Assembly (NCBI GenBank): GCA_964036045.1
Contig: OZ038384.1
Location: 64,453,355-64,517,354, forward strand
Direction: 5' to 3'
Source: Eutreptiella sp. 'Long Island Sound 2002'
Lineage: Eukaryota; Euglenozoa; Euglenophyceae; Eutreptiales; Eutreptiaceae
Length of the DNA: 64,000 nt
Below the pieces are notes generated by a model. It had not been told where the DNA came from. It was given only the letters and a program-made list of their open reading frames with translations, and made no database searches. Numbering within the stretch: the stretch's first letter is position 1; every line of letters begins with the position of its first letter. Shown one piece after another: positions 3,225 through 50,731 of the stretch. The translations under genes were made by a program, and so were the position numbers.

Positions 3225-3238
3225 GCTGTAATGATTAG
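3225..3238. repeat. Target-site duplication of Element B, right copy
   Basis: Identical to 2152-2165. Confidence 0.85.
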
Positions 3239-11007: not shown

Positions 11008-11013
11008 TGCTTT

Positions 11014-11016
11014 TCA
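11014..11016 (-). other. In-frame UGA between gag-protease and pol of gypsy-1
   Basis: Gag-protease ends NNAFRFF, stop, and two codons later is the pol ATG in the same frame. The stop falls inside the Dam-like domain. It could be a programmed readthrough site or a TGG to TGA (Trp to stop) mutation. The presence of two other nonsense codons in this copy makes mutation the simpler reading. Confidence 0.8.
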
Positions 11017-12940: not shown

Positions 12941-12959
12941 CCTCTTCTCTCAATCTCTG
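12941..12959. repeat. 19-bp target-site duplication of LINE-1, left
   Basis: CCTCTTCTCTCAATCTCTG is repeated at 36926-36944. It encodes EIERRG of gypsy-1 gag on the minus strand in both copies. Confidence 0.9.
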
Positions 12960-13876
12960 CAGCGCCGGTTCGATATCGACCAGATCAAGGGTCGCGATCG
13001 CAGCAGAAGAAAAATAAAATTACGAGAAAAAGACGCACCGCCAGCAGAAATAAAGCGAAAAATCGTCTTTTCCGACCTCAGAAACCCCCCCAACAATTTT
13101 ACGCCGCTGTTTGGCGAGGTCGCAAAATATAGGACACTCACCAGAAAAGACGAACAATAGAGTCGCGACGGCGAAGAAACTGAGCGTTGCTTGCCCCAAA
13201 CCACCTAGCAAAGTGCGTGTCCTAGGCGCTAGGGACTTGTGCGCGCCCCAAAACAACCCACACATAGACAACAACAACGGCACCGGCCGCCGACAAGCAA
13301 GTATGTTATGTGCCGCGCACCGCGAAAAACCAACGAAACAAGCACAACGCGCGGGAGAGGTAGACAAGGAGAATAAATAGGTAACGAACCGCACCACGGT
13401 AGAGATATACCGCAAGTACACGACCAAGCAATGCAAGCCCGCTCATATAGGAAATACGCGCGAAGGGGATCACAACAAAAAGAGCAAGAGGCCGCACATG
13501 TACCCAAGTATGTTGAATGTCGTGCATGAAAAATACACACAAGCAACAACAACGCCACCGGCCGCCGGAAAGCAAGTATGTTATGTGCCATATGTTGTGT
13601 GCATAACGCCGTAACAAGCGCAAAACAAGTAACGTGATAAGCAACGCCAAAGTGCGCCGCCACGAAAAGCGCAACGAAAACCGCACCGGCAAGGAAAACC
13701 AACAAGAGGTGGCACCAAAAGAACGCCTATGCTCACCCCCACTCGCATAGGGAAAGAAAGGTATGCCCGCACGCGCATGCCCGGAACGCCGCAAGGCCAT
13801 CACCGCCACGGACGAGCAACATGGTATGAAGGGACAAACAGGGAGGAACAAAAAGACCACCGAGGTAAAGCACAAC

Positions 13877-13878
<2 letters not shown>

Positions 13879-13914
<36 letters not shown>
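13879..13914 (+). repeat. Uninterrupted poly(A) tract, 36 bases
   Basis: The A-run lies within the LINE-1 leader. It could mark the 3' end of a retroposed sequence nested in the leader, or simply be an A microsatellite. No flanking TSD was found by eye. Confidence 0.9.
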
Positions 13915-13916
<2 letters not shown>

Positions 13917-14261
13917 AAGTCTACACACGTGACTAGTGGGGTCCAAGTATGTTGCCACGCTACGCTACGTAACCGAGACGTGCCCACCGCCCACCCGCAC
14001 GCCCGCTTATGTAGGAGGCGAAAGGGAACGAAAGGGAACAAAAGGTATGCCGCCGCATGCAAACGAATAGTAGACAAGCCACACACCGCCACCAAGAACG
14101 CAAGTATGTTACCATGTCGTGCCACGTCGCCAACCGCGGAGTTGCGTGGGTTAGAACACACAAATAGCCAGGGAGGGGGACAGGAAGAGCAAACACACAA
14201 ATAGCATAGCGCCGGCGAGTGCCGGGTCCCAACAAACACACATGCACGCATCCATGTTCTA

Positions 14262-14352
14262 TCCTCACAGGTCCCGAAGAGAAGCGTATGCTCGTGTCTG
14301 CGTCGTCCGGGCGTTAAAGTAGGGTTGTCGTAGACGCTTAGGCAAGTATTGT
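14262..14352. repeat. Module shared with the gypsy-1 3' region
   Basis: Matches 5290-5380 block by block: CACAGGT, GAGAAGCGTATG, GCGTTAAAGTAGGGTTG, ACGCTTAGGC, TTGTGT. I estimate roughly three-quarters identity. Confidence 0.65.
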
Positions 14353-14984
14353 GTCGTGCCGTCGTCACACATAAGCGAACGCCCGACAAGGCGGGAGGAC
14401 TAGAACACGTTAAGGTAGTGGGGAAAGAAGCAGGTATGTTGCATGTCACGCCGCGCGCGCGGAACGGGCGACGAGAAAAGGTAGCGACCAAAGGGGGGTG
14501 GAAACAAGCCGGGAGCAAGTGGGGCGATAAACCTACACGCAAGCCGGTCGCACACGAATGTCGCATGACGCCAGCCAGCTCGAGGTGCCGTGTCACGACA
14601 AAACCGCCGCCGCCGCACGCTTGCTTACGCACCCTTCTCTCCCTACGCAGGTCTCAAAAGAGGAAGCCCGGGCCGACAAGGAAAAAGACAGAGACACGCA
14701 ACAAAGCGGAGGCAGGGAAAAAGTGCATGCCAGGGAGAGGGGTAGAGGAAAGGGTAAAGAGCAACGAAGCCGCGAAAGGAACAAGGGGTAGCCAGCGAAC
14801 GAGCAAGGGGCGCACACAGAGGAGGGGACACGGCGGGCACACGGCGAGCACAACACCGCACCGAGACACCGGAGAGGGGAGCACCGGAGGACCAAGGAAA
14901 GAGCAGCACCACGCACCACGACACGCACGGCACAGGCACCACACACACCGCACACACCCAACGAACCCCGGCAACCCACCCGGC

Positions 14985-17900
14985 AGTGGGCGGGCAGACG
15001 GGAGAGGGACAGCGCCTGACCCCAAGCGCCCCTCAACATGGTGGAAGGCACCCCCCCCGGGGACGCCCTTCCGCCACCCCCACAGCGAGCAACGCCGGCC
15101 CGCAAGGGCGCACGCTGTGGGGCCGGTGCCGGGCCCCCACGCCCACACCGACCGCACCCAGGACACGCGGGTCGCGGAACCCTGGCTGCACGCTCCGGAG
15201 GACGGGCAGCCGGGGGAGGGACAGCGCCTGGCACCAGGCGCCCCTCACAACGGTGGAAGACAGCCCCCCCCGGGGACGCCCTTCCGCCACCCCCACAGCG
15301 AGCAACGCCGGCCCGCAAGGGCGCACGCTGTGTGGCCGGTGCTGGGTCCACACGCCCGCATCGACCGCACCCGGGACACACGGGTCGCGGAACCCTGGCT
15401 GCACGCTCCGGAGGACGAGCGGCCGGGGGAGGGACAGCGCCTGGCACCAAGCGCCCCTCACAACGGTGGAAGGCAGCCCCCCCCGGGGACGCCCTTCCGC
15501 CACCCCCACAGCGAGCAACGCCGGCCCGCAAGGGCGCACGCTGTGGGGCCGGTGCTGGGTCCACACGCCCGCATCGACCGCACCCGGGACACACGGGTCG
15601 CGGAACCCTGGCTGCACGCTCCGGAGGACGAGCGGCCGGGGGAGGGGCAGCGCCTGACACCAGGCGCCCCTCACAACGGTGGAAGGCACCCCCCCCGGGG
15701 ACGCCCTTCCGCCAGCCCCACAGCGAGCAACGCCGGCCCGCAAGGGCGCACGCTGTGGGGCCGGTGCTGGGTCCACACGCCCGCATCGACCGCACCCGGG
15801 ACACACGGGTCGCGGAACCCTGGCTGCGCGCTCCGGAGGACGAGCAGCCGGGGGAGGGACAGCGCCTGACACCAGGCGCCCCTCACAACGGTGGAAGGCA
15901 CCCCCCCCGGGGACGCCCTTCTGCCGCCCCCACAGCGAGCAACGCCGACCCGCAAGGGCGCACGCTGTGGGGCCGGTGCTGGGTCCACACGCCCGCATCG
16001 ACCGCACCCGGGACACACGGGTCGCGGAACCCTTGCTGCACGCTCCGGAGGACGGGCAGCCGGGGGAGGGACAGCGCCTGACACCAGGCGCCCCTCACAA
16101 CGGTGGAAGGCACCCCCCCCGGGGACGCCCTTCCGCCACCCCCACAGCGAGCAACGCCAGCCCGCAAGGGCGCACGCTGTGGGGCCGGTGCTGGGTCCAC
16201 ACGCCCGCATCGACCGCACCCGGGACACGCGGGTCGCGGAACCCTAGCTGCACGCTCCGGAGGACGAGCGGCCGGGGGAGGGACAGCGCCTGACACCAGG
16301 CGCCCCTCGCAACGGCGGAAGGCAGCCCCCCCGGGGACGCCCTTCCGCCACCCCCACAGCGAGCAACGCCGGCCCGCAAGGGCACACGCTGTGGGGCTGG
16401 TGCTGGGTCCACACGCCCACGTCAACCGCGCCCGGGACACGCGGGTCGCGGAGCCCTGGCTGCACGCTCCAGAGGACGAGCGGCCGGGGGAGGGACAGCG
16501 CCTGACACCAGGCGCCCCTCACAACGGTGGAAGGCGCCCCCCCCGGGGACGCCCTTCCGCCACCCCCACAGCGAGCAACGCCAGCCCACAAGGGCGCACG
16601 CTGTGGGGCCGATGCTGGGTCCACACGCCCGCATCGACCGCACCCGGGACACACGGGTCGCGGAACCCTGGCTGCACGCTCCGGAGGACGGGCGGCCGGG
16701 GGAGGGACAGCGCCTGACACCAGGCGCCCCTCACAACGGTAGAAGGCACCCCCCCCCGGGGACGCCCTTCCACCACCCCCACAGCGAGCAACGCCGGCCC
16801 GCAAGGGCGAACGCTGTGGGGCCGGTGCTGGGTCCACACGCCCGCACCGACCGCACCCGGGACACACGGGTCGCGGAACCCTGGCTGCACGCTCCGGAGG
16901 ACGAGCGGCCGGGGAAGGGACAGCGCCTGACACCAGGCGCCCCTCACAACGGTGGAAGGCACCCCCCCCGGGGACGCCCTTCCGCCACCCCCACAGCGAG
17001 CAACGCCGGCCCGCAAGGGCGCACGCTGCGGGGCCGGTGCTGGGTGCACACACCCGCATCGACCGCACCCGGCACACACGGGTCGCAGAACCCCGGCTGC
17101 GCGCTCCAAAGGACGAGCGGCCGGGAGAGGGACAGCGCCTGACGCCAGGCGCCCCTCACAACGGTGGCAGGCACCCCCCCCGGGGGCGCCCCTCCGCCAC
17201 CCCCACAGCGAGCAACGCCGGCCCGCAAGGGCGCACGCTGTGGGGCCGGTGCTGGGTCCACACGCCCGCACCGACCGCGCCCGGGACACGCGGGTCGCGG
17301 AACCCTGGCTGCACGCTCCAGAGGACGAGCGGCCGGGGGAGGGACAGCGCATAACACCAGGCGCCCCTCACAACGGTGGAAGGCACCCCCCCCGGGGACG
17401 CCCTTCCGCCACCCCCACAGCGAGCAACGCCGGCCCGCAAGGGCGCATGCTGTGAGGCCGGTGCTGGGTCCACACGCCCGCATCGACCGCACCCGGGACA
17501 CGCGGGTCACGGAGCCCTGGCTGCACGCTCCGGAGGACGAGCGGCCGGGGGAGGGACAGCGCCTGACACCAGGCGCCCCTCACAACGGTGGAAGGCACCC
17601 CCCCCGGGGACGCCCTTCCGCCACCCCCACAGCGAGCAACACCGGCCCGCAAGGGCGCACGCTGTGGGGCCGGTGCTGGGTCCACACGCCCGCATCGACC
17701 GCACCCGGGACACGCGGGTCACGGAACCCTGGCTGCACGCTCCGGAGGACGAGCGGCCGAGGGAGGGACAGCGCCTGACACCAGGCGCCCCTCACAACGG
17801 TGGAAGGCACCCCCCCCGGGGACGCCCTTCCGCCACCCCCACAGCGAGCAACACCGGCCCGCAAGGGCGCACGCTGTGGGGCCGGTGCTGGGTCCACACG

Positions 17901-19095
17901 CCCGCATCGATCGCGCCCGGGACACGCGGGTCGCGGAACCTGGCTGCACGCTCCGGAGGACGAGCGGCCGAGGGAGGGACAGTGCCTGACACCAGACGCC
18001 CCTCACAACGGTGGAAGGCAGCCCCCCCCGGGGACGCCCTTCCGCCACCCCCACAGCGAACAACGCCGGCCCGCAAGGGCGCACGCTGTGGGGCTGGTAC
18101 TGGGTCCACACGCCCACATCGACCGCGCCCGGGACACACGGGTCGCGGAACCCTGGCTGCGCGCTCCGGAGGACGAGCGGCCAGGGAAGGGACAGCGCCT
18201 GACACCAGGCGCCCCTCACAACGGTGGAAAGCACCCCCCCCGGGGACGCCATTCCGCCAGCCCCACAGCGAGCAGCGTCGGCCCGCAAGGGCGCACGCTG
18301 TGGGACCGGTGCTGGGTCCACACGCCCGCATCGACCGCGCCCGGGACACACGGGTCGCGGAACCCTGGCTGCACGCTACGGAGGGCGAGCGCGGCCGGGG
18401 GAGGGACAGCGCCTGACACCAGGCGCCCCTCACAACGGTGGAAGGCACCCCCCCGGGGACGTGCTTCCGCCACCCCCACAGCGAGCAACGCCGGCCCGCA
18501 AGGGCGCACGCTGTGGGGCCGGTGCTGGGTCCACATGCCCGCATCGACCGCACCCGGGACACGCGGGTCGCGGAACCCTGGCTGCACGCTCCGGAGGACG
18601 AGCGGCCGGGGAAGGGACGGCGCCTGACACCAGGCGCCCCTCACAACGGTGGAAGGCACCCCCCCCCGGGGACGCCCTCCCGCCACCCCCACAGCGAGCA
18701 ACGCCGGCCCGCAAGGGCACACGCTGTGGAGCCGGTGCAGGGTCCACTGCCCGCACCGACCGCGCCCGGGACACGCGGGTCGCGGAACCCTGGCTGCACG
18801 CTCCGGAGGACGAGCGGCCGGGGAAGGGACGGCGCCTGACACCAGGCGCCCCTCACAACGGTGGAAGGCACCCCCCCCCGGGCCGCCCTCCCGCCACCCC
18901 CACAGCGAGCAACGCCGGCCCGCAAGGGCACACGCTGTGGAGCCGGTGCAGGGTCCACTGCCCGCACCGACCGCGCCCGGGACACGCGGGTCGCGGAACC
19001 CTGGCTGCACGCTCCGGAGGACGAGCGGCCGGGGGAGGGACAACGCCTAACACCGGGCGCCCCTCGCAACACTGGAAGGCGCCCCCCCGGGGATG
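14985..19095 (+). repeat. 212-bp tandem repeat array, about 19 units, upstream of LINE-1 ORF1
   Basis: The marker (CAACGGTGGAAGG and close variants) recurs about 20 times between 15037 and 19067 at a mean spacing of 212 bases. Units differ by scattered substitutions and small indels; the last three are shortened (TGCAGGGTCCACTGCCC variant). Because 212 is not a multiple of 3, the frame rotates from unit to unit, so the long ORFs on both strands (up to about 400 codons) cannot be a conserved repeat protein. An array directly before ORF1 is where repeated promoter units lie in some LINEs; that role here is inference. Confidence 0.95.
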
Positions 19096-19197
19096 CCCAT
19101 CCACCGCCCCCACACCGAGCAACGCACCAACGCACCAACGCACCAGCCACGGGACATCCGCACCCCGCCCCCTGCTCTTAGACACAGCAACATAGCA

Positions 19198-22100
19198 ATG
19201 GCGGAACCCGCGGCACCACGCAAGACACGCCCCCGATCTCCGACGCTGGACGAAGCACACGAGGTCATCAGGGCGCTGGGACTCAGAGACGGCGAAGGAG
19301 ACCCCCCACAAGAGGACGCGGGCACAGACTCCGACCTGGAGGCATTGCCGGAGCCCCCCGCGGGGGGCGCGCCCGCGGAACCTGCGCCGCCGGCGGGCAG
19401 CGTATCCGCGATCTGCCCCGCGTGGAAACGGGGCCATTGCACCGGCGAAGGCTGGTGCCCCAGACAGCACCCCCAGCCCCATGCCGACGACGGAGCGTTG
19501 CCCGAGGTGAAACCTGCGGCCGCACGCGCCGCCCTACGCTACGGGGTGACGCAGGGCTGGATCCTGGATGAGACCGCGCGCGGCAGCGTGAACATCCAGG
19601 AGGCCGTCTACCGCGTCACCCACGCGGGACAGGCGGCGGTGGCCCTGCACACCCGGGGCCGCCACGGTGGACCCGCAGAGGGGATCATTGTGGATCCCTC
19701 GGGAATGGTGCTGGTCCTGGCGGCGGACATGGTCCGAGGGGTGCTCCACGTGTCCCGCGTGCGGCGGGCGTGCCCACAGTGGACCATCCAGGTGTACACC
19801 CCCCCGCGGGCGTGGCCCTTTTCCACATGGGCGGTGCTCGCCGTCATGTGGCACCTGGCACCAGAGGACGCCCCCACAGGGACCGCGGAGGACATCGCCC
19901 GGGACCTCCACACCTGGCCGGCCGGCCAGGAATACCCCTGGCGCAGGCCCCGGGGCGGCCTCCCGGTGGCACCAGCGGCGGAGGGGCTCAGCCTCGCGGC
20001 AACCCTCCAACGGCACCCCGACAAGTATGCACGCCACTTCCTGCAGACGGGCGCGGTCCCGGCCGCCCCGCCAGACTCCGAGTGGCGATGGGACGCAGGG
20101 GTGGCGCAACCACTGCCGGGCCCCTGGACCCTCCCGTTGTGGTACTTACCAATGGGCACCTTGGCCCACGCCACCCAGGCCGTCAAGGGGGCTTTCCCGC
20201 AGCCGCCCCTCCCCGGCGTGGCCCTGCTCCGCAGCCTGCAGGCGGGGGCCACCTGGGTACGGTGGAGGGAAGGGAAGGGGCGCTCGAGCCCCTACTTCCC
20301 CATGGTCCAAGGCCAGGCGCTGATTCATGCCGAGGGCATGGGGACCGTGGAATGGGGGGCGATCGTGCCCGGCACGGCGTGCAGGTGGATCACGGCGGCC
20401 GCCCCACAGCCCATGCGGTCGCCGCCGGCGTGCCACCGCCTCCTACGGATGGTCCCCTCATTGGCCCCCCGGCACGCCTTTACAAGGGACGTGTGGAAAG
20501 CCGTACTGAGCCACACCAGGGAGTGGCTGACGAACCCGGGTACGCGGTACCCGCCGGGACCGGTGCTCGAACAGCTCACGGCCCCCACACCCGGGGTCCT
20601 CCACGCCCTACACAGGGCATCGGCCCTCACGAAGCAGCTCAACGACGAAGTGCTGGACCTGGCGCTGGAGCCGCTGCGGGTGCTCTACCCGCAGGCACAC
20701 ATCCCAGCCGCGGGCACGTCCAACCGCCTAGGCCGCCTGGGGTTGCAGCGCCGCGTCGAGGCCGCGCACCCAGGAGGCGTGGTGGAACAGTGGCTAACGC
20801 TCCGCAATCCGTCCGCCGCGGAGGGCCACTGGTACCTGCACCAGCTCCTCTTCCAGCCACGGGCAGCCCCGGAACACCGCCGGCAGAACCCGTACCACAC
20901 GCACCCGGAGCGCCGGGGCGCGCAAAACTACCCGCAGCCAATCCCGCCCGCCCTCCCGCCGGGGCAGGGCCCGGAGGCGCTACAGCGGGGCCCCCCGCTC
21001 GACACCGCCACCACGGTACAGCAGTGGGGAGGCGACGATGCGAGCGGTGCCGAACCGGACTGCACGAACTGCGGAGCGGTGGCCTGGATGGCAGCCTGCA
21101 GGCACCTCACCCGAGATACCACGGGACTCCGGCAGTACAGACCCACGGACCGCACGGCGCTGGCGTCCGCGGTCGCGGCCGTCACCATGGGTCCAGTGGC
21201 GGCGTGGCCGGCGCAGCTGCTGCCCCACGTCCCCTGCCGCGACACGCGGCCCCGACGGCCGGCCGCGACACACGAGCCGACGGCGCCCCTCACGGCGGAG
21301 CAACTATACGTCGTCGCGGCGGCTTTGCTAGCAGACGGCGGGGAGAGCTTCGTCCACCACCACGGCCCGGCGCAAATTGCGGGATGCATACAAGGGCCCC
21401 AGCGCGATGCACCAGACCCGTGGCATGCCACACTCCGCGGGCGCACCCGCGTCTGGGGTGCGGGCGATTGCGCACCCCCGCCCGGGCCTAAGCAGGGGGA
21501 GGCGCTGGTACTGCAGACAGCAGGCTACCAAGCCATCGTACACGGCCACGCCAGAGGGTACCGGTCGCACGTCCTGGCCGGAGGCCGATGGGCGGTCTGG
21601 CACAGCACCGCCAGGCAAGGGGCATTCCCGCCCCTGACCCACGTCGACTGGCGACAGGGGCCCACCCAGGCCTACTACATGTCGGCGGACCCCTGGCCGC
21701 TGGCGGTCCTGCTGCACACTGTCAGCGCCCCCAACAAGAGGCAGGAACCGGGGTGGGTCAACCCCCCCGCACTGGTGTGGAGCCCCGACCAGGAGGAGCA
21801 TCTACGGGCCGCGTGGCAGGGAGACGCCATCAGGGCCACGGACGTCCCGGACCTCCACGCGGGGCCCATCACGCACGCCCGCCCAGCGGCTACCCTGGCG
21901 GTGGCCCAACGGGGGCAGCAGAACCCACAGTGGGTGGTCTGCATGTTCAGCCCGGCGGACGCGCACGTCGTCGTCTGCGACCCTGAACGCCTGCCGGGGC
22001 CCGAAGCCGTGATCCGCGTGGCAGACTGCACACGCATGATCATCAAGGCGCTGCGGGAGGGCGAACACCACGCCCTCCTGCTCCAGGTCAGGCTGAAGGA

Positions 22101-22893
22101 CAACGCCCGGGCGGCGAGGCCGGGAGTGTGGCCGGCAGCGGCGCACCCCGCCGACCTGGAGCTCCAGCTGGCGGTCCCGACCACGGTGTACCACTGGCTA
22201 CAGGCCTTCCACGACCTGCGGTGGAGGAGCAAACCCGACCGCCAAATCGGCTCCACGCACTGGCAAACGTGGCTGCAAGCGGACGCGCAGCGCGATGCCG
22301 CCCGAGGCCTCGGGCCCGCGCCCGCGACGCGAGCCCTCGATGCGGCGGCCCCGGGCCGCACGCTGGCACCACACACGGTGCCGCTGGCCAACCTGCCCTT
22401 CGAACCAGCGGCGGAGGGCGCCATTCAGAAGTCGGTGCAGCTCCCCCCGGCGCGAGGGGCCACGGAGCCGACGAAATGCCCGCTGTGTGCGGACAAGTAC
22501 TACACCAGCGGGACGATGCTGGAACACCTGGCGTGGCACGCGGTGCACGCTGCGGCCCCGGCGGACGACAAGGAGGCGGCCGCCAACATCATGCAGGGGA
22601 GAGCACGGAGGTCCCCGTGGCACGCCCCGTACACCCAGCGCCCCCCGCCCCAGGCAGCCGACCACGCAGATGGAGGTGAGGAGGCACCCGGGGCGGCCCC
22701 GGGGGCCGGCGGTGCGGCCCCACCAGGGCCCATGTCCATCCCCGCGGGGCTGGCCCCCCTGGCCCCCCTGACTCCCCCGGTCCCCCGGGCCCCCTTGTGG
22801 GCCCCGCTGGGAACGGGCTCAGCGGATGCGGCGCACCCGGATGCCCTGGCGGCACCAGCGAACCCGGCGGCGATGCCAACGCGGGATAGCTGA
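19198..22893 (+). CDS. LINE-1 ORF1: 1231-residue protein with CCCH and C2H2 zinc fingers
   Basis: The start chosen is the first in-frame ATG outside the tandem array, 10 bases after an ACAG that could be a splice acceptor. Residues 72-91 form a CCCH finger (C-x7-C-x5-C-x3-H, in CPAWKRGHCTGEGWCPRQH). Residues 1093-1115 form a C2H2 finger (C-x2-C-x12-H-x3-H). ORF1 proteins of non-LTR elements bind their RNA, so these fingers fit that role. In between, NCGAVAWMAACRHL (about 624-637) and YQAIVHGHARGYRSHVL (about 777-793) recall the Cys box and His box of ubiquitin-specific proteases, but the position of the catalytic Cys is Ala; this resemblance is weak. The protein is far longer than usual ORF1p. 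It ends at a UGA in frame with ORF2. Confidence 0.8.
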   Translation: MAEPAAPRKTRPRSPTLDEAHEVIRALGLRDGEGDPPQEDAGTDSDLEALPEPPAGGAPAEPAPPAGSVSAICPAWKRGHCTGEGWCPRQHPQPHADDGALPEVKPAAARAALRYGVTQGWILDETARGSVNIQEAVYRVTHAGQAAVALHTRGRHGGPAEGIIVDPSGMVLVLAADMVRGVLHVSRVRRACPQWTIQVYTPPRAWPFSTWAVLAVMWHLAPEDAPTGTAEDIARDLHTWPAGQEYPWRRPRGGLPVAPAAEGLSLAATLQRHPDKYARHFLQTGAVPAAPPDSEWRWDAGVAQPLPGPWTLPLWYLPMGTLAHATQAVKGAFPQPPLPGVALLRSLQAGATWVRWREGKGRSSPYFPMVQGQALIHAEGMGTVEWGAIVPGTACRWITAAAPQPMRSPPACHRLLRMVPSLAPRHAFTRDVWKAVLSHTREWLTNPGTRYPPGPVLEQLTAPTPGVLHALHRASALTKQLNDEVLDLALEPLRVLYPQAHIPAAGTSNRLGRLGLQRRVEAAHPGGVVEQWLTLRNPSAAEGHWYLHQLLFQPRAAPEHRRQNPYHTHPERRGAQNYPQPIPPALPPGQGPEALQRGPPLDTATTVQQWGGDDASGAEPDCTNCGAVAWMAACRHLTRDTTGLRQYRPTDRTALASAVAAVTMGPVAAWPAQLLPHVPCRDTRPRRPAATHEPTAPLTAEQLYVVAAALLADGGESFVHHHGPAQIAGCIQGPQRDAPDPWHATLRGRTRVWGAGDCAPPPGPKQGEALVLQTAGYQAIVHGHARGYRSHVLAGGRWAVWHSTARQGAFPPLTHVDWRQGPTQAYYMSADPWPLAVLLHTVSAPNKRQEPGWVNPPALVWSPDQEEHLRAAWQGDAIRATDVPDLHAGPITHARPAATLAVAQRGQQNPQWVVCMFSPADAHVVVCDPERLPGPEAVIRVADCTRMIIKALREGEHHALLLQVRLKDNARAARPGVWPAAAHPADLELQLAVPTTVYHWLQAFHDLRWRSKPDRQIGSTHWQTWLQADAQRDAARGLGPAPATRALDAAAPGRTLAPHTVPLANLPFEPAAEGAIQKSVQLPPARGATEPTKCPLCADKYYTSGTMLEHLAWHAVHAAAPADDKEAAANIMQGRARRSPWHAPYTQRPPPQAADHADGGEEAPGAAPGAGGAAPPGPMSIPAGLAPLAPLTPPVPRAPLWAPLGTGSADAAHPDALAAPANPAAMPTRDS

Positions 22894-27410: not shown

Positions 27411-29588
27411 CAACACGCCGGGCACCCGTTCTGGTACGTCCGAGCCACCTTGCACCACAGTGACGCCCTACTGCACAAGGCGGACTGGGCGGCGTCCCAG
27501 GACACCGTCTTGCAGAACACGCCCCCGGACCCTGGCCACGCCCAACTCATCGTCGCCGGCCGTGACGGCCATCTCGATCTACGGCCCCCCACAATGCGGG
27601 TGCTCGGCGAGGTCGCACAACGGGCGCAGACGGACCATGCGCTGACGCACCGGGGACACACACCTCTGGGCGCGGCCCACGCCACGGCCTACGTCCACGC
27701 CCGGGACCTCACCGCGGCGGCCACCAACCGCCGGGCGCTGCGGGCCCGAGACGGCCACACGCCGGTGCAGCGCAGGCTCCGCGTCCGGAAGGAGCGGCTC
27801 TCCGGCGTCGCCATCGTCCCGCAGCCGTGCCTTTTCTGCGGCGGCCCGGAAGAGACCCCGGTGCACATGCACGTGGGCTGCACCCACTCGCGGCTCCTCT
27901 GGCCCCACTACCGCCAGGCGGTGCACGAGGCGGCCCGCCACCTCCCACCTGGGGACAAGGCCCTGTGGGTGGCCTCGTGGCGCTCCGCAGGCGCCATGTG
28001 GACGGAGGTGTTCTGCTCCGGACTGGTGCCCGAGGACGCGGAGGCGCAGCTCCGCGCCATAACCCGATACGACCCGCCGGGAGGGACCTCGGTGGACGAC
28101 TTCCTCCACCACATGCTCCGGCTAGGGGACTTCGCGTGGGAGCTTCGCAACCACCGGCTGGAGCAACTCCTCCACGACCCCCTAAGCGCGGCGGCCCGGG
28201 CGCACCGGTGGCTCACTGCGGCGGAGGGCGACCACCCTCCCCCTCCCCCGCGCCCTGACAAGGACTTCGTAGCCTCCCTCCGTGTTGTGAATGGCACTCT
28301 GGAGTGCCCACTCCAAGAGGGCCCCCACCCGTATCAGGACCTGCCGGGGGGGTTCTCGAGGCACCTGCAAGACGCCCTTTTCCCACCGTGGATCATCGGG
28401 CGCGGCTCCATGACCGCATGGGAGGCGCGCATCGTGGGGGAGGAGTGGGCGCGGGAGTGGGGCCGGTGGTGCGCCGCCACGCGCGCCCCGGAGACCCCTG
28501 CGCAACGATACGCCGCCATCCCGCTCCGGGGGTGGGGGCTGGACACCCGGCCGAGACCCACCATGGTCCGAGGGGCGGGACCTGACCACCCGTGGGACGC
28601 GGCGACGGGGGAATGGCTGCAGGCGGCCCCGGGGCCGCAAATGGGATGGACTGGGGACGTATCCTCACTCGTCAGGACGCCCGTCCCGCCCCGCATCGTC
28701 CTTCACACCGCCAACGTGCTCCGGGCCACAGAGATACGCACGTGGGGACACGCTGCGGCCACCGTCCGGTGGCAACCCCCAGAGGACGGGGCCACCCAAC
28801 TCACCGTGGCGCACTTCAAAGCGGGGGGGGCGGTATACGACGACGCCCTGTCCCGGCTGGGCGACACCCGGGGGCCCTTACTCCTCATGCTCCCCACCGG
28901 TATCGCAGCCGCGCTGCGCCAGGAGCTGGACGGCTGCGAAGGGCTGCGAGTGGGGTGGGAAGCGGTCGCGGACGGCACCCTACTAGCCCTCCTCCACAGG
29001 GACACCGCGAACGGGTGCCAATGGGACGCGCTGACACCCCACCTCACCGGGCGCCACGTGTACATGGCGAGCCCCCCCCAGGGGCACCCCCGCCCGGCGT
29101 GGGACGACCTCATCGCCGCCTTCCACGACCACGGGATCCTCCCCGGCGACACGTGGCAGGAGGTCCAGCGGAAGACGCTTGGCAAGGACTACCGGCGCCG
29201 CGTCCGCGCCCGCTTGCTGGAGATCCGGGACCCCCTCCGACAGAGGTGGGACGACCTCTGGCTCCGCCATCTCGACCCTTGGTCGCCGCCCTCCCACCTC
29301 CCGCACACCTGCCGACTCTGCGGAGAGTGTGACACGGTGTCCTCCGCAGCAGCGACAGGCGCCAACAGGTGCGAGCGGTGCACCCAGGTAGCCGCGTGCC
29401 CCTGGCCCGAACCTCCCGCAGGTCCGCGCAGGCGCACGGAGGAGGAGGCCTTGCGCCGGCGCATCGAGGGGGCACACACCCCCTCACACGAACAGGCGGG
29501 CCCCGCGGGCGCTGCCCTTCTGTGGATCCACGTGCACCTGCGGGACCCCACATCCATTGCGCACCTGTCGCACGTGTTCGCCCCCTAA
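27395..29588 (+). CDS. LINE-1 ORF2, C-terminal part: end of RNase H, zinc fingers, long extension
   Basis: Continues ORF2 after a one-base frame change in the GC-repeat CTGTGCGCGCGGAGC. It completes RNase H with FWYVRATLHHSDALLHKADWAA, the usual W...H...AD pattern. CLFCGGPEETPVHMHVGC at 27829-27882 is the C-terminal Cys/His finger common in plant and protist LINEs. A further 560 residues follow, with a second Cys cluster (CRLCGECD, then CERC) near 29310-29385. The extension matches nothing I recognise. The frameshift may be a real mutation or an assembly error in a GC run. Confidence 0.8.
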
Positions 29589-29627
29589 CCCCCACCCGCC
29601 GCCGCCCTTTGCAGAGCCCGCAGCACC

Positions 29628-30356
29628 ATGCCACGCCGACGGGGGGATGGGCCGGGGCACACCAGGGCCCGCCGCAGAGCGCAGGAGGCGGCCGTCCGGG
29701 GCCTGGTGGCGGACGCGGTGGCGGAGGCAAAAGGAGCGCACGCTGCCGCACGATGCGACCTGGAGGGCAGTGCGAGGGCCTTCCTCAACGAGACCGCCCT
29801 CCCGGCCGTCCGCGCCCTGAACGGAGCGGGGGCCCCTACGTTGCTCCCGGCAATGCACCGGATCGTGAACGCCGTCCGGCCGGGGCTCATCAGCCCGGAA
29901 GCGGCCCTCTACGGGCACTGGATGGAGTGGCGCGAGTCCAATCGGTCGGGCCGGCCCCTGTCCATGGGGGACGCCCTCCGGCTGGCGGGAGCGGGGTCTG
30001 CCATGTCCCTCCGCAGTAGCGCCCCAGCCCTGCTGCACGCCCTCAGGACCCGCTACCCCGGGGACGCGGCCCCGTACCTGAACCAGGCGCGGGCCACGTA
30101 CCCGGGGGGAGTGTCCGAGCTGGATGCGGCGCTCCACCTTCTACACCCGCCGGACGAGGACCTGGAGGTGGGCGAGGTCACGGTGTTCGTGGAAGGCGCG
30201 GACGAGGCGCCCGCCCGCCCCCGGCCGACCGACCCGGTGTATGACGGCACCGGGCCTACCCCCCCCGTACGCCGTCGTCTACGAGGCGTTCCCCAGGGAG
30301 CCCACTTGGTGCCCCGCCCTCCCACCGGCGACGCACGCGCCCCGCGGCTGGGCTAA
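29628..30356 (+). CDS. LINE-1 ORF3: unknown protein, 242 residues
   Basis: It starts at ATG 39 bases after the ORF2 stop. Just before it, a C-rich tract ends in TTTGCAG (29608-29614), a good 3' splice-site match. The protein has a basic N-terminus (RRRGDGPGHTRARRR), an Ala-rich helical middle and an acidic stretch (DEDLEVGEVTVFVEG). It is no known LINE domain. Codon composition is like ORF1 and ORF2 (G/C at third positions), and the sequence is less repetitive than the shadow frames, which supports real coding. It overlaps ORF4 by 116 bases. Confidence 0.5.
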   Translation: MPRRRGDGPGHTRARRRAQEAAVRGLVADAVAEAKGAHAAARCDLEGSARAFLNETALPAVRALNGAGAPTLLPAMHRIVNAVRPGLISPEAALYGHWMEWRESNRSGRPLSMGDALRLAGAGSAMSLRSSAPALLHALRTRYPGDAAPYLNQARATYPGGVSELDAALHLLHPPDEDLEVGEVTVFVEGADEAPARPRPTDPVYDGTGPTPPVRRRLRGVPQGAHLVPRPPTGDARAPRLG

Positions 30357-30861
30357 CCAAGACCTGCCCCCCCCCCTCTCCAGGACCAGGGGTGCCCACC
30401 ACAGGGGGCAGGTCCTCTGGCAAGAGTGCCCTGGCACCTCCCTCCTCCTCCTCGTCGTCGCGTCCCGCGGGGGCTCGGGGCGGATCCTGGGGATCACCCC
30501 CACCCACCTCTATGGGGCCACACCCGTACCCCGCCCCCCCCTCCCGGCGCCCGCGGCGCGGGACGGAGTACACACCTTCCTGCGCACACAGGAGGTCACC
30601 GCCGTTACGGGGGTCCATCTGGTGCGGCTGCCCCCGGCACCGCTCGACGACCCCCGGGGGCCCAGGGCCCTGAGCCCCGCCCCAGACTGGGAGCTGTGGC
30701 GCGGCGCGTGGGCCGCGTGGCTCCCCCGCCTCCCCTCCCAATGCCGGTGGATGGCCGCGGACCCCCGGCCGTGCGGGGCTGACGCCACAGCCGGCCCCCC
30801 ACCCCCTCCCCCCCTCCCCCCCGCAGAGCACCACACGGCACTGCCCACGGCACGGCACTGA
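30241..30861 (+). CDS. LINE-1 ORF4: unknown protein, 206 residues
   Basis: The frame is open from 30124; the ATG at 30241 is preferred because upstream residues are the Arg/Thr-rich shadow of ORF3. It has a plausible globular centre (GQVLWQECPGTSLLLLVVASRG) and a Trp-rich patch (DWELWRGAWAAWLPRL), then a Pro-rich end. Its stop overlaps the ORF5 start as UGAUG, a stop-start arrangement known to couple translation in several non-LTR elements. No family is recognised. Confidence 0.45.
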   Translation: MTAPGLPPPYAVVYEAFPREPTWCPALPPATHAPRGWANQDLPPPLSRTRGAHHRGQVLWQECPGTSLLLLVVASRGGSGRILGITPTHLYGATPVPRPPLPAPAARDGVHTFLRTQEVTAVTGVHLVRLPPAPLDDPRGPRALSPAPDWELWRGAWAAWLPRLPSQCRWMAADPRPCGADATAGPPPPPPLPPAEHHTALPTARH

Positions 30862-32945
30862 TGCACCAGGAGGTAGTGGGAAGGGCGCGCCTGCCACCAC
30901 GCATGCCTACCAGAGTGACAGTAATGGCAGACTCCGATGGGTCCCTCGGGCGGGACGACCGCCACCACCGCCGGTCCCGCTCCCGCTCCCCCGTCTCCTC
31001 CCCAGAGTGGACGGGGGAGACCCTCGCGGAGCGCGAGGAGCGGAGGCTGGCGGAGGCGGCGGTGGTCGGACCGCCGCCGCCGGCCCGGGAACCTGGGCCA
31101 GCCGAGACGGCCGCCCCCGACGCCCAAGCGGCCAGCACCGCCGCCCCGCCCCGCCCTGACGCGCAGGAGGCGGGGACCGCGGCGAGCCACGCCGCGGCCC
31201 CGGCCGCGGCCCCCGGCACGCCGCCGGCAAGGGGGGCAGCCCCGGCACAGGAGCGGGACGCGTCGCCGAGGGCTGCCGCAGCCGCGCAGGAGAGCAAGCA
31301 GGGCGCAAGAGGGGTTGCGACGGACCCCACACGGGCCGTGGGCGCCTCGCCGGCGGCCGCCGCGGCAGCAGCGAAGACCGAGGAGGATGTGCGAGAGTCT
31401 GCGACCGCGGCCACGGGCGCCTCGTCGGCGGCCGCCGCGGCAGCGAAGGAGAGTGCGGAGGGCGCGAGAGGGGCTGCGGCCCCTGGCACGCCGCGCAAGC
31501 GGGGGAAGAACCCCGCACGGGCCGCGGACGCCTCGCCGGCGGCCGCCGCGGCAGCAGCAGTGGGCAGGGAGAGCGCGAAGTACCGCGCCCACGCCAACCC
31601 CGCCCACACCCACACCAGCCCCCCCAAGCCGTACCCCCCCAAGCCCTTCCCCCCGGGGCGGGAGCGGCACGTCCGCCCCCCGGCGCGCGAGCGCTCGCCG
31701 CCGGGCGTCACGCTGCCGCAACTGCAAAGGCAGCGGGACGCCCGGCGAGTGGTCCAGGAAGGGCGCAGCGGCGAGGGGGAGGGGAGCGGCGGACGGCGTG
31801 ACAGGCAGGGGGCAGGGGAGGGGTCGGGGCACGGGAAGGGCGCGCGGGAGCGCGGGCAGGGGGCCCAGGTGCAGGGGACGGAGCGAGGGGTGGTGGGAGA
31901 GCGAGCGGGCCGGGGCGTGGTGGACGAGAGGCGGGACCCGCGACTCGGACAGGGGGTCGGGGAGGGGCCAGGGCACGGGAAGGGTGTTCAGGGGCGAGGG
32001 AAGGGTACCCAGGCGCAGGGGGCTGGACAAGGGGGGATGGGAGAGCGAGCGGGCCGGGGTGTGGGGGACGAGAGGCGGGACCCGCGACATGGGCACGGGA
32101 CCGGAAAGGGGCCCAAGGGCAAGGGCAGGGGCAAGGGCAAGGGCCCCAAGGGACAGGAGGGACGGGGCACGGGAGCCCAGGGGGGAGGGCGGGGCGAGGG
32201 GAGGGGGGCAGAGGGCGGAGCACCCCCGCAGCCGGAAGTGCAGCCGGTGAGGTGCATCCCCCCCGGCATCCAACAGATGCCGGCACACCACACCTACCAC
32301 CACCACCACCACCACCACCACCACCTCTACAACATCGACCCTGACGCCGGCGAGCTCATCCCCCCCCAACCCCCACGACACCAGCACCAGCAAGCCCCCC
32401 CCGCGCCGAGGGCGGAGCCGGCGCGGATGGCCTCGGCGGAGGGGGGACGGGGCGTGGCATCGGCGCCGCAGGTGCAGGAGCAGCGAGGGGGGCCGGCACA
32501 GGGGGCGGAGGAGAGCCGGCCGTGGAACGTGGACTGGGGCGCAGTCCCGGACCCGCTGGGGGGGGAGACCCTCCCCCTGGTGGGGGAAGTGTACGGGTGG
32601 TTGTGCTGGGCCAACCAGGGGACCTCCAGGAGGTCGCGGAACCGGCCCTTCGATGCCGTGCTCCTCCGGAGGGACGGAGGACACCGGGAGGCACCCCCGG
32701 GGGGGTGGGCGGCACCAGAGGACCACGAGAGGGTCCTCAGGTCAGTGATCCGGGCGGCGTGGCCCGACAGGGAGCCGACGTGGCCGGCCTTCCTGGAGGG
32801 GGGAGCGGTGCTCCGCATCGGGGATGCGGACGCCAACAACTGGCTCCCCCGGGCTCTGCGCAGCGCCCTCGCCCACTGGCGCTACCGCCGGCACAACCCG
32901 CCGCCGCCGCAGCCCCAGCCCCCACACAAGCGGCGGCGCAAGTGA
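30861..32945 (+). CDS. LINE-1 ORF5: low-complexity RS/Ala/Gly-Lys protein with conserved-looking C-terminal domain
   Basis: 694 residues starting at the ATG of the UGAUG overlap; a polypyrimidine tract ending GCAG lies 35 bases upstream. The N-terminus has an Arg/Ser patch (HHRRSRSRSP) as in splicing and RNA-binding proteins. Then come Ala-rich repeats (GASPAAAAAA, ESAEGARGAA), a Gly/Lys/Arg tract (GKGPKGKGRGKGKGPKG) and a run of about ten His near residue 480. The last 150 residues look globular, with several Trp (PWNVDWGAVPDPLGG, YGWLCWANQG). The basic and His-rich parts suggest nucleic-acid binding; the function is unknown. The 738-codon ORF on the opposite strand is its shadow. Confidence 0.5.
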   Translation: MHQEVVGRARLPPRMPTRVTVMADSDGSLGRDDRHHRRSRSRSPVSSPEWTGETLAEREERRLAEAAVVGPPPPAREPGPAETAAPDAQAASTAAPPRPDAQEAGTAASHAAAPAAAPGTPPARGAAPAQERDASPRAAAAAQESKQGARGVATDPTRAVGASPAAAAAAAKTEEDVRESATAATGASSAAAAAAKESAEGARGAAAPGTPRKRGKNPARAADASPAAAAAAAVGRESAKYRAHANPAHTHTSPPKPYPPKPFPPGRERHVRPPARERSPPGVTLPQLQRQRDARRVVQEGRSGEGEGSGGRRDRQGAGEGSGHGKGARERGQGAQVQGTERGVVGERAGRGVVDERRDPRLGQGVGEGPGHGKGVQGRGKGTQAQGAGQGGMGERAGRGVGDERRDPRHGHGTGKGPKGKGRGKGKGPKGQEGRGTGAQGGGRGEGRGAEGGAPPQPEVQPVRCIPPGIQQMPAHHTYHHHHHHHHHLYNIDPDAGELIPPQPPRHQHQQAPPAPRAEPARMASAEGGRGVASAPQVQEQRGGPAQGAEESRPWNVDWGAVPDPLGGETLPLVGEVYGWLCWANQGTSRRSRNRPFDAVLLRRDGGHREAPPGGWAAPEDHERVLRSVIRAAWPDREPTWPAFLEGGAVLRIGDADANNWLPRALRSALAHWRYRRHNPPPPQPQPPHKRRRK

Positions 32946-33081
32946 AGGCCCAGACGGCGGGCACGGGAGGGGGGGATGGGCCCCCTGACCCACGCCCCCC
33001 CCACGGTACGGCACGACGTGCGGGGACGCACCGCCACCCGCGGGAGGGAGTGCGGGGGAGCCAAGCGCGGGGAGGAACCGG

Positions 33082-35110
33082 CTGCCCCGCAACCTGCTAA
33101 CCACTGACCGCTAACCATCAACCACCCCCGGCCGGCCGGCGCCGCGCGGCAACGGCCGGGGAGGTGAGGGCCCCGGCGAGGGCCTGCGCGGGCGTCCAGC
33201 TCTCGAGATAGGGGGGGCGGGTGACGGGCGCGACCCCCTGGCCGATGGCTGGCCCCCGGGACCAGGGCCGCCATGCCGCCCCCGCCCCCCCCCCCCACGG
33301 CCGACGAGAGGCATCACCAGGGGGCCAAAGGGCCCCCCCCAACCCACCCCCCCCCCGCACAGACCCGGGGGCGGGCGAGGGGGCGGCCCCCCCACCCCCC
33401 CCCCCCCCGCACCCACCGCAGCAGGGGAGCCACAGGCGCGGCCCTCCGCCCCCCCAGGGCCGGGGGGGCGCCCCCCCCTCAGGGGGAACGGCGGCTGGGC
33501 CTGCTCCCGCGAACCCACACCGGCGTGCCGGGGCAACGCGCACGACGGAGCAGGAAGGAGGCCGCGCCCCACATGACCCTCCCGTAACCACAGCCCGCTC
33601 CGAGATGACGGAGGGAGGGTGTCAAGTCAGATGGGGCCCCCAGGGGGGCGGTCCACGGGCCGCCCCTCACCCCCCCCACCACGGGGCGGCATCAGCCCCG
33701 ACCGCAAGCGCGCGCCGGAAGGGAGCGCACCGGCGACGCGGAGAGAGCCAGGAAGGAGTACCACAGGCCGCCGCCTGGAACGAGAGCAGGGAGGCCGCGG
33801 CGCGACACCCCCCCCCCCCCCCCCGCCCCCCCACCGGCCCGCCGGCCGCAGGGGCCCCGGCCCCCACCCCCCGAGGCTGAAGGGACGGACCCCCCCGCCC
33901 GAGAGGGGAGCCGGAGTGTGACCCGCCCCGACGCCCCAGCCGCCGGCTCCAATGGGGGCCGCGAAGAGCAAGTGGGCCCGCGCCTGCGCACCGGGACGCC
34001 GCGCAGATCGTGCCCAGAGAAGCCGGGTGGGCGCGAACCGGAATGGTATGGGTGGCCACGCCCCCCATGGACAGCACGACGCCAAGGGACGCCCGCTTTG
34101 TTGCCTACCCGGGGAAAGCGGCCCCGCAACCCGCTAACCACTGACTGCTGACCCTCACGGCCACCCCCGGCCGGCCAGCGCCGCGCGGCAACGGCCGGGA
34201 GATGAGGGGCCCCAGGGAGGGACTGCGTGAGGATCCGGCACTCGGTAGAGGGGGGCGGGGGAAGGGCGCGACCCCCCTGGCCGATGGCTGGCCCCCGGGG
34301 CTGGGACCGCCAAGCCGCCCTCCCCTCCCCCCCCTTTTTGGCCGACAGGGGGCATCGCCAGGGAACCGAAGGACCCCCCCCACTCCCCCCCCCCTCCCAC
34401 ACAGGCCCGAGAGCGAGCGGGGTGCCCCCCCCCCCCCCCCCCCCGCACCCACCCCAGCTGGGGAGCCACAGGCGCGGCCCTCCGCCCCCCCAGGGCCGGG
34501 GGGGCGCCCCCACCCACAGGAGGAACGGCGACACGGTAAGGGCAGCGGCGGCTGGACCTGCCCCCACGAACCCACACCGGCGTGCCGGAGCAACGCGCAC
34601 AACGGAACACGAAGGAGGCCGCGCCCCACATGACCCTCCCGTGACCACGGCCCACTCCGAGGGGACAGAGGGGGGGTTTGCAGGTCAGCAGGGGCCCCCA
34701 GGGGAGCGGTCCACGGGCCGCCCCTCACCCCCCCCCCGCCCCGAGGCGGCACTTCAGCCCCGACCGCACGCGCGCGCCGGAGGGGAGGGCCAGAAAGGGG
34801 TACCACAGGCCGCCGCCCGGAACGAGAGCGGGGAGGCCGCAGCGCGACACCCCCCCCGAGGCAAGGGGAATGGACCCCCCCCACCCGAGAGGGGGGCCGG
34901 AGTGTGACCCGCCCCCCCGCTCCGGCCGCCGGCCCACAAAGGGGCCGCGAAGAACAAATGGGCCCACGCCTGCGCACCGGGACGCCGCACAGATCGTACC
35001 CGGAGAGGCTGGGTGAACACGAACCGGAGTGGTATGGGGGGCCACGCCCCCCATGGACAGCGCAACGCCAGTGACGCCCGCTTTGTTGCCTGCCCAGGGA
35101 AGGCAGAGGG
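33082..35110 (+). repeat. LINE-1 3' region: about 1-kb module present twice in tandem
   Basis: Copy 1 (about 33082-34120) and copy 2 (about 34121-35110) each begin with CCCCGCAACC(T/C)GCTAACCACTGAC, contain GCGCCGCGCGGCAACGGCCGG, GGCCGATGGCTGGCCCCCGG and CGCACCGGGACGCCGC, and end with CGCTTTGTTGCCT(A/G)CCC. There are many C-homopolymer length differences. No ORF is conserved between the copies, so this is noncoding. Confidence 0.85.
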
Positions 35111-36925
35111 ACGGAAAGAGGCAGAGCGACCCCCCGCCCTACAGTCAGTCGGCGACCCGGTGGTGCTACTGCCCGGCGATCCAACGCACCCCACCCAGCC
35201 CCCTCCCCTGTCCCGACCCCGTGCGCGTGGACTGGGGCCTCCTGGCACGCGCAACACGCTTCACGGCGCACAGCCCCACCCTCAAGACAGGATTCATAGG
35301 CGACGACACCCCTCAGTGGCGTAAGAGACTCCCGCGGCCCAGTAGTGAGAGCGTCGGTCTTCAATCGTCCAGTGCGGGGGTTCGATCCCGGGCGTTGGTG
35401 CTCCTGGGATCCCTGCACGTAGAGCTCTCTAGTTGGCGACGTGGGAACCACCCCCCCCTCCAGCAACTCGCGCCACCACCGATACCGGTGGATCGGGTGG
35501 AGGTCTCGTTCGTTTTACCCCCCACCCAAGAAAAACAAAACACATGGGAACCACCCACCCCTGCAGCAGTGCGCACCGTCACCTGTACTCAAACAGGTCG
35601 ATGGGAGGCCTCGCCCGGTATTCGAAGGGATCGGTGGGAGACCACCGGTCCCGGGGTTCGAACCAGCTCCTGCGCGGCGCGCGCCTGGCGCGCTACCTCC
35701 GGGGCGGCTGCCTTCAGAGATACACCGGCACCCGGGTCACAGAACAAACGCGCCCGCAACCCCCTCCCCCTGTGCTAGGGCTGCCCTGCTGGGCCGTGAA
35801 CCGGGACATTGGAGCACCACTCCAGCCACGGTCACCCCAACCCCCCCACGCATCCCGCAGGGCGAAGCTCCGTGCGCATCAGGCTCGTCATGAGAATCCG
35901 GCGGGCCGGCGCCTGGACACCAAGACGACACCTCTCTCCCCCCCCACGAGAACAGAGCGGGGCCCCCACAACCGCACGCCCGCAACGCAGACCCCGACAG
36001 CCCACCTAGTGGACGGACAGATGGGGGAAGAGGCACGCCCCACGCCCCACGCAAAGGACGAAGGCACCCCCCGGCAACCCCAAGCCAAGTAGGGGGGAAC
36101 CGGGACCGGACCGCCCCCCCCCAAGCACGCCAGACGGGGCACGGGACCGGGGCAGGACACGCGGAGGGGCACGGACCACATGGAACGGCCCTACCAGCGC
36201 CCAGTGCCGGGACCACGCGAGATGCGCGCGCCACACCACCCAGCGGGGAGCGGACACCGCGAGAGCGCGAGCGCACACACACGAAAAGGACACGCGGGGA
36301 CCACCAGAAGGGCAACCGGACCGAGCGCGCGGAACGCACAGACCACATGGAATGGCGTACCAGCGAGCGAGGATAAGGGACACCCGGATGGGACGGCCCG
36401 CCACACGCAACGCGGGATACGCGGGGCGGGAGGGGGGAAGAAGGGGAAACACAACACCAGGTACCGGCCCGAACCCCCCCGAACCGGCCGCGAGCGCCGC
36501 GCACACACTGACGGGACACTGCACCCGCCATGGCGGTAGTGGCGCACAGCGCCACGCCCCAACCCCTAGGCTAGGCAGCCTCCGCGCCAGCCCAAGGGGG
36601 TCCCACTGGCGACAAGCCAGTAGCACGGGCCCGGCGGCGCCGGTGCCCCGGGCGACCACGCATTAGGGGGGCGACGCAGTGGGTAAGCGCCCGCGGCCAC
36701 GGCTGCGAATTGATGCACTGACCGGGGAGTGGCGAAACGGGGACGCCGGGGAAGGACGGGGCTCCGAGCTCTGTGAACCCGGGGGACTCCGCCACCAGGC
36801 AGGAGGTACGTCTTGGAGGGCCCCCCACTAGGACCCGGTGGGGAGGATATCACCTGGCCCGACCAGGTGGCCCCCCGGGGCCGAAAAGCGTCTAGTACCC
36901 GCAAAATCAAACCTCAAACCTCAAA
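35111..36925 (+). other. LINE-1 3' terminal region with tRNA-like elements and CTCAAAC tail
   Basis: No gene. It contains a box A/box B pair (35343-35389), an isolated box-B match GGTTCGAACCA (35655-35665) and a box-A-like CAGTGGGTAAGCG (36677-36689). The tail CAAACCT repeats end at the TSD. A 5-bp hairpin-prone GC stretch (GGTGGGAGACCACC) precedes the second box B. Part of this stretch could be a SINE inserted in the LINE. Confidence 0.5.
35315..35400 (+). other. tRNA-derived sequence with box A and box B
   Basis: TAGTGAGAGCG (35343-35353) matches box A and GGTTCGATCCC (35379-35389) matches box B exactly. An anticodon-arm-like GTCGGTCTTCAATCG sits between them. The stems do not all pair, so it is not a credible tRNA gene; it looks like a tRNA-derived internal RNA polymerase III promoter as in SINEs. 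Confidence 0.5.
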
Positions 36926-36944
36926 CCTCTTCTCTCAATCTCTG
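36926..36944. repeat. 19-bp target-site duplication of LINE-1, right
   Basis: Identical to 12941-12959. The first CCT could also be counted in the LINE tail, so the true length is 16-19. Confidence 0.9.
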
Positions 36945-46861: not shown

Positions 46862-47013
46862 CAGGGGCGCAGCCAGGGAAGCATATTGGGGTATGTAAAT
46901 GGACTACCAATTACATACTCCGAGAAGTCCCTTCATCTGCTTGGGGGTACGATTCATGGCCTCAGTCCAGTCACAAAATGCAGCCACTTTCTCAGGGGGG
47001 GGGATCTCCGTTT

Positions 47014-50480: not shown

Positions 50481-50521
50481 TGAACCCAGTGGGGGGGGGG
50501 GGAGGAGGTCCGGGGTAAAAA

Positions 50522-50731
50522 TCAGGCTGCGAGCTGCCCATTTAGAGAAATGGTCCAGATTTCGTTGCCAATGAAATTGGCGTGACCTTTAATCCACATG
50601 ATGTGGAGGGGGTTGGTGATGAGAAGTAGGGCGCTGTGTACGGCGACGGTCCATGTGTCGTCTTGGAACGGGCTGGGCCTATAGACTTGGCATTTCTGGA
50701 GGGTGGACACCACCTGTTCGTTGTCAATCAA
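50522..50731 (-). pseudogene. LINE-2 RNase H, C-terminal fragment
   Basis: HIMWIKGHANFIGNE is the W-x-x-G-H-x-x-x-x-G-N-E end of RNase H I. Only the last third of the domain is here; the beginning is lost in the same deletion that removed the RT core, since RT motif A ends 4 bases away. Confidence 0.7.

What the first reader, a model, noticed from the sequence alone, without database searches (positions are those of the whole stretch)
12960..36925. A 24-kb LINE with a 19-bp TSD, a 4-kb tandem array and five ORFs
The sequence shows perfect 19-bp duplications at both ends, a single strand of coding, an endonuclease-RT-RNase H ORF in the middle and a microsatellite tail. Known LINEs are mostly 4-8 kb with one or two ORFs; one carrying three extra ORFs downstream of RT and several kilobases of repeats would be among the largest described. 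Whether all 24 kb is one element or a composite is the open point.
Basis: partly seen in the sequence, partly recalled or inferred. Interest (0 to 1): 0.9.

Follow-up and report, generated by a model that had tools for sequence, protein, structure and literature searches.

The report
A 24-kilobase LINE retrotransposon family
This stretch is one copy of an exceptionally large copy-and-paste mobile element, several times longer than usual for its kind and repeated in near-identical form elsewhere in the same large genome, and its first two genes look as if they are joined by reading through a stop signal.

Summary
In the source genome (2.28 Gb, host not identified) 5 of 7 other 5'-complete copies read in full are 22.3-24.0 kb and colinear, apart from a variable ~1-kb stretch in the 3' region; all 7 start at window 12993 and end in the same repeat tail. 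The other 2 are 6-kb deletion forms sharing one junction. Exact target-site duplications flank 5 of 8 copies. Corrections: the 5' end is 12993, not 12960 (16-41 nt of unexplained filler precede it); there are three long ORFs, not five; RNase H is unconfirmed. New: ORF1 ends in UGA-CUC in 14 of 14 copies read, and ORF2 follows in frame without an AUG before its endonuclease, suggesting stop-codon readthrough. dN/dS is 0.37, 0.31 and 0.47 for ORF1-3, against 0.79 in the 3' region. Ten paper searches in a partial library showed no LINE of this size. Host, RT clade, copy number and translation mechanism stay open; copies read were sampled from the best-scoring hits.

The parts
12941..12959 (.). 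5' copy of the target-site duplication
   Evidence: exact 19-bp match to 36926-36944
12960..12992 (+). 33-nt filler between target-site duplication and the conserved 5' end; not shared with other copies
   Evidence: 39 of 39 other scored 5' hits match only from 12993; fillers differ between copies
12993..14998 (+). 5' leader of the element
   Evidence: conserved start in 7 of 7 copies read in full
14999..19125 (+). 212-bp tandem array, 19.5 units; 13.6-22.5 units among 8 copies
19198..22893 (+). ORF1 (about 1231 aa from the likely ATG) ending in TGA-CTC; CCCH-like and C2H2-like motifs
   Evidence: relatives start at the same Met (P0034); motifs in 5 of 5 copies by pattern; dN/dS 0.37
22894..29588 (+). 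ORF2: APE-like endonuclease, reverse transcriptase, cysteine-rich C-terminal part; same frame as ORF1; one base short in the window (frame changes between about 27.3 and 27.4 kb)
   Evidence: dN/dS 0.31
29628..32945 (+). ORF3 (1104 aa in the main database cluster); frame interrupted in the window
   Evidence: ATG conserved in 6 of 6 copies; P0125 with 171 cluster members starts there; dN/dS 0.47
32946..36907 (+). 3' region, probably non-coding, with an internal imperfect duplication (33168-34116 against 34207-35104, in pieces) and a ~1-kb length difference between copies
36908..36925 (+). (CAAACCT)n repeat tail
   Evidence: same tail in 20 of 20 fetched 3' ends
36926..36944 (.). 3' copy of the target-site duplication

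Best explanation
The region is one copy of a LINE (non-LTR retrotransposon) family whose full-length unit is 22-24 kb. Shown: constant ends, different insertion sites, target-site duplications in most copies read, three ORFs with signs of purifying selection, an array of variable length, and internally deleted derivatives with the same two ends. Inferred: a ~24-kb RNA starts at the leader or in the array; ORF1 is translated; some ribosomes read through UGA-CUC and make an ORF1-ORF2 fusion (about 0.6); ORF3 is made from its own AUG 13 codons after the ORF2 stop; the ORF2 endonuclease nicks the target, the tail region primes, and the RT copies the RNA by target-primed reverse transcription; short filler is added when the 5' end is attached. 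The 6-kb derivatives keep leader, array and the last ~1.75 kb and would move with proteins supplied in trans.
For: 5 of 7 other 5'-complete copies colinear at 22,335-24,012 bp, all 7 with the same start and end and different flanks. Exact duplications of 15-19 bp in window, C19, C18, C11:24.3M, C11:3.46M, control maximum 10 bp in 56 mismatched pairings. A homologous Gypsy without the insert lies in the window at the C18 target site. EN and RT by Pfam; RT matches R2 and human L1 ORF2p chains. dN/dS 0.37, 0.31, 0.47 in frame against 0.99-1.77 in shifted frames. Removing the window copy with one duplication leaves an ORF running across the junction.
Against: No duplication was found for C5:143.6M and C17:41.05M within ~450-500 bp and only 8 bp for C17:30.9M. 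In the control run the C11:24.3M pair reached only 10 bp, equal to the control maximum, because its 3' side was clipped inside the tail. The ORF3 codon-position signal alone is weak (35/35/54). Readthrough is not measured; no special RNA fold follows the stop (z -0.92). Copies were taken from the best-scoring hits, so older copies are not represented.
Confidence: 0.9

Rival explanations
1. A composite: an ordinary-sized LINE nested with, or beside, other repeats that together look like one element.
For: The 3' region is variable between copies, and the ORF3 and 3' modules have no family match.
Against: 5 of 5 full-length copies at different sites carry all modules in the same order, with duplications at the outer ends; ORF3 is under purifying selection.
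Confidence: 0.05
2. An assembly artefact (false join) made the 24-kb structure.
For: Long repeats are where assemblies fail; no reads could be examined.
Against: Separate copies with different flanks, different array lengths and 1-2% divergence repeat the structure; duplications fit the ends.
Confidence: 0.02
3. For ORF2 expression: not readthrough but initiation at a non-AUG codon, or termination-reinitiation, right after the ORF1 stop.
For: SART1 and L1 use termination-reinitiation (PMC5972666, passages); in some relatives a Met lies between stop position and endonuclease (P0006, P0031).
Against: In 14 of 14 copies read there is no AUG between the TGA and the first endonuclease motif, ORF1 and ORF2 share one frame, and two relatives with a sense codon at the stop run on in frame.
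Confidence: 0.35

Closest known systems
APE-endonuclease LINEs (L1 and relatives)
   Same: EN-RT protein, ORF1 before it, simple-repeat tail, target-site duplications; RT matches human L1 ORF2p and R2 chains
   Different: 24 kb, a third ORF after the RT ORF, ORF1-UGA-ORF2 in one frame, leader plus array before ORF1, 5' filler
Mouse L1 promoter monomers
   Same: tandem units of about 200 bp upstream of ORF1 whose number varies (PMC9022269, passages)
   Different: 13.6-22.5 units instead of a mean of 3-4 in young mouse subfamilies, and a ~2-kb leader lies before the array; promoter role here untested
Giant retroelements: Terminons (Penelope-like) and planarian Gypsy-like elements
   Same: retroelements above 20 kb with additional coding capacity (PMC6431247, section 5 and passages)
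   Different: Those are not LINEs; what I read of that review (abstract, section list, section 5, passages) names no non-LTR element above 20 kb

Membership tests
Non-LTR retrotransposon (LINE) | reverse transcriptase with an APE-like or restriction-like endonuclease | tested here: met
   RVT_1 and Exo_endo_phos above the curated cut-offs
Non-LTR retrotransposon (LINE) | no long terminal repeats | tested here: met
   The repeat finder at 12000-40000 (seed 14, minimum 40) lists no direct repeat pairing the two ends
Non-LTR retrotransposon (LINE) | variable-length target-site duplications | tested here: met
   15-19 bp in 5 of 8 copies, 8 bp in one, none found in two
Non-LTR retrotransposon (LINE) | poly(A) or simple-repeat 3' tail | tested here: met
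   (CAAACCT)n in 20 of 20 fetched 3' ends
Non-LTR retrotransposon (LINE) | 5'-truncated copies | tested here: inconclusive
   1 of 20 fetched 3' ends stops aligning 1.3 kb from the end; its duplication was not checked
LINE with RNase H | RNase H domain in ORF2 | tested here: inconclusive
   no Pfam match at E<=10; model pLDDT 30.5
Any named LINE clade | position in an RT phylogeny | not tested

The most novel reading that the evidence does not exclude
This is the largest LINE family known: a 24-kb element with a highly processive RT (5' truncation rare), a gag-pol-like UGA readthrough linking ORF1 and ORF2, a third selected ORF of unknown role, a long internal tandem array, and a way of attaching the 5' end that leaves 16-41 nt of filler.
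Probability: 0.5. Interest if true: 0.85.

Novelty: new variant of a known kind. Interest (0 to 1): 0.75.

Why it matters
It raises the size that a target-primed retrotransposon is seen to reach several-fold and shows that such a unit can spread with both ends intact. Three questions become testable: how processive a LINE RT can be, whether a LINE uses retrovirus-like stop-codon readthrough to set the ORF1:ORF2 ratio, and what a third ORF under selection does.

Tried and rejected
Composite and assembly artefact: disfavoured by colinear copies. Five ORFs: rejected. RNase H, and a USP-like cysteine protease in ORF1 (a motif resemblance recalled, from no call): two structure jobs gave pLDDT 31.4 and 30.5, so neither is claimed. 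Structured RNA after the UGA: not supported (37 of 200 shuffles fold as well). Rfam: no match at the gathering thresholds. Relatives in viral contigs by six peptide patterns: none; in plasmids: one record, 23% identity over 25% of the query. Host: the rRNA and RuBisCO searches did not complete, so it stays unknown. Source of the filler: not traced. Similarity of array and 3' region: ~72-79% local matches in several fetched copies, nothing at E<=1e-3 in a direct comparison within the window. ORF1-3 relatives outside this family: the three protein searches scored only the ~8000 candidates sharing most words; apart from two RT hits (P0032, P0033, 26-29% identity) the hits are close relatives of the same element by identity.

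Literature: ten answered searches, seen as listings; PMC6431247 (abstract, section list, section 5, passages), PMC5972666 and PMC9022269 (passages). None of the listings or passages seen names a LINE above 20 kb; the library lacks most subscription papers and all bioRxiv preprints.

Full report
Observation. The window holds an exact 19-bp repeat at 12941-12959 and 36926-36944, a 212-bp x 19.5 array at 14999-19125, an EN-RT ORF and a (CAAACCT)n tail. The element is 71.7% GC against 53.0 and 53.4% in the two window flanks.

One element or a composite. The window lies in a 2.28-Gb genome of 2205 contigs (G000, unnamed). A 301-bp 5' probe gave 2407 first-look candidates, of which 40 were scored; the 39 other than the window all match from window 12993 on, at 99-100%. 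An ORF2 probe gave 2098 candidates and a 3' probe 1820, again 40 scored each. These candidate numbers are not verified copy counts; that 5' candidates are not fewer than 3' ones only hints that strong 5' truncation is not the rule. I read 7 of the 39 other 5' hits in full. Five are 22,335-24,012 bp and colinear with the window (97.4-98.9% identical to it in the aligned ORF and 3' regions), except that 4 of the 5 are about 1 kb shorter in the 3' region. Two are 5,975 and 5,989 bp and join window 12993-17884 to 35174-36930 or 36938, with the same junction. A further 8 were read only around the ORF1-ORF2 junction: 8 of 8 carry it; one of them (L053) stops matching 562 bp into the 1501-bp stretch. 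So 24 of the 39 were not read beyond the hit or its short flanks. In the hit lists one more 5'-ORF2 pair lies 15,956 bp apart on C6, against 16,608 in the window, within what array length allows. Of 20 fetched 3' ends (of 39 other scored), 20 have the tail, 18 continue through the 3' region to the edge of the stretch (about 2.4 kb; two of these, an inverted pair on C14, with an extra ~530 bp), 1 stops aligning 1.3 kb from the end and 1 is an internally deleted form.

Ends. Duplications: window 19 bp, C19 17, C18 15, C11:24.3M 19, C11:3.46M 17 (a few of these bases may belong to the tail), C17:30.9M 8; none found for C5:143.6M and C17:41.05M in 499 bp upstream and 450 bp downstream. With mismatched flanks the maximum is 10 bp in 56 pairings; in that run the own pairs gave 19, 17, 17, 14, 10, 8, 8 and 6 bp, the values for C18 and C11:24.3M being lowered because the tail side was clipped. 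Between duplication and conserved 5' end lie 33 nt (window), 41, 17, 26 and 16 nt of copy-specific filler (counted without a GTCG that the seven other copies and two further 5' hits share and the window lacks). A homologous Gypsy in the window at 10479-10493, with one base difference in the 15 bp, is the unoccupied counterpart of the C18 site and lacks the filler. Joining the window flanks at one duplication leaves a minus-strand ORF of 214 aa across the junction, which ends in a stop just before the 589-aa protease-bearing ORF of the Gypsy; so the LINE sits in the upstream part of a Gypsy element. The gag reading of that ORF is a resemblance, not a test.

ORFs. ORF1 is open from inside the array in 4 of 5 other full-length copies (1422 aa stop to stop) and 1280 aa in the fifth and in the window; the main database relatives have 1231 aa (clusters of 439 and 177 members), and the one read, P0034, starts at MAEPAAPRK. 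ORF2 is 2231 aa stop to stop in 5 of 5 and one base short in the window; its main cluster, P0007, has 438 members. ORF3 is 1102-1103 aa stop to stop in 2 of 5 and interrupted in 3 of 5 and in the window; its main cluster, P0125, has 171 members and 1104 aa and starts at the ATG at window 29628. dN/dS, mean of 15 pairs of 6 copies by NG86: 0.37, 0.31, 0.47; in shifted frames 0.99-1.77; in the 3' region 0.79, 0.83 and 0.91 in its three frames. Variable sites by codon position are 32/16/46, 52/38/100, 35/35/54 and 50/47/47. ORF1 carries a CCCH-like and a C2H2-like pattern in 5 of 5 copies (patterns recalled). zf-RVT at the C-terminal side of ORF2 is below its cut-off (E 0.017).

The ORF1 stop. 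TGA CTC CAG is the same in 14 of 14 copies read (window, 5 full-length, 8 partial), and ORF2 follows in frame without an ATG before the first endonuclease motif. In two database relatives the stop position is a sense codon and the protein runs on (P0025, P0031). In P0006 and P0031 a Met lies between that position and the motif, so a start there is possible in some copies. That UGA-CUN is a leaky context is recalled, from no call. No unusual fold follows. I put readthrough at about 0.6. ORF3 lies in the same frame after a TAA but has its own AUG with A at -3, so the shared frame may be chance.

Array and mechanism. The unit number is 13.6-22.5 in 8 copies. By analogy with mouse L1 monomers (PMC9022269, passages) I infer a promoter role; untested. 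The deleted 6-kb forms suggest that leader, array and the last 1.75 kb hold what is needed in cis; inferred from two copies.

Novelty. What I read of the review of oversized eukaryotic elements (PMC6431247: abstract, section list, section 5, passages) has headings for Gypsy-like, Terminon, Helitron, Polinton and Teratorn elements and names no non-LTR element above 20 kb. Ten paper searches listed none either, in a partial library. The element meets the LINE features tested, apart from truncation, which stayed inconclusive; size, third ORF and candidate readthrough make it a new variant of a known kind.

Noticed in passing
L021 (C17:30.90M) and L024 (C11:24.31M): Two ~6-kb internally deleted copies at different sites share the same junction (window 17884 to 35174) and both ends: probably a derivative that spread by itself; L038 may be a third.
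   Followed up: partly
12960-12992 and the 5' junctions of L009-L028: Filler of 16-41 nt between target-site duplication and element start, different in each copy.
   Followed up: partly
12993-36925: The element is 71.7% GC (ORF2 third positions 86.3% in the C5 copy) in flanks of 53%; origin of the contrast unknown.
   Followed up: no
L042 and L043 (C14:51.62M): Two 3' ends in opposite orientation about 6.7 kb apart with the same 3' flank: an inverted duplication.
   Followed up: no
6811-12783 and 44598-48156, minus strand: Gypsy-like elements (RT, RNase H, integrase, protease matches); the LINE sits in the upstream part of the first.
   Followed up: partly
49485-57086, minus strand: A second element with an endonuclease domain (51183-53198) and nearby ORFs with a 300-bp direct repeat (54165 and 54706); an AlkB-like look at 53467-54267 is recalled and untested.
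   Followed up: no
2740-3225; 39695-40386: Tandem arrays of 65 bp and 162 bp; inverted relatives of the 162-bp unit lie near 63.8 kb.
   Followed up: no
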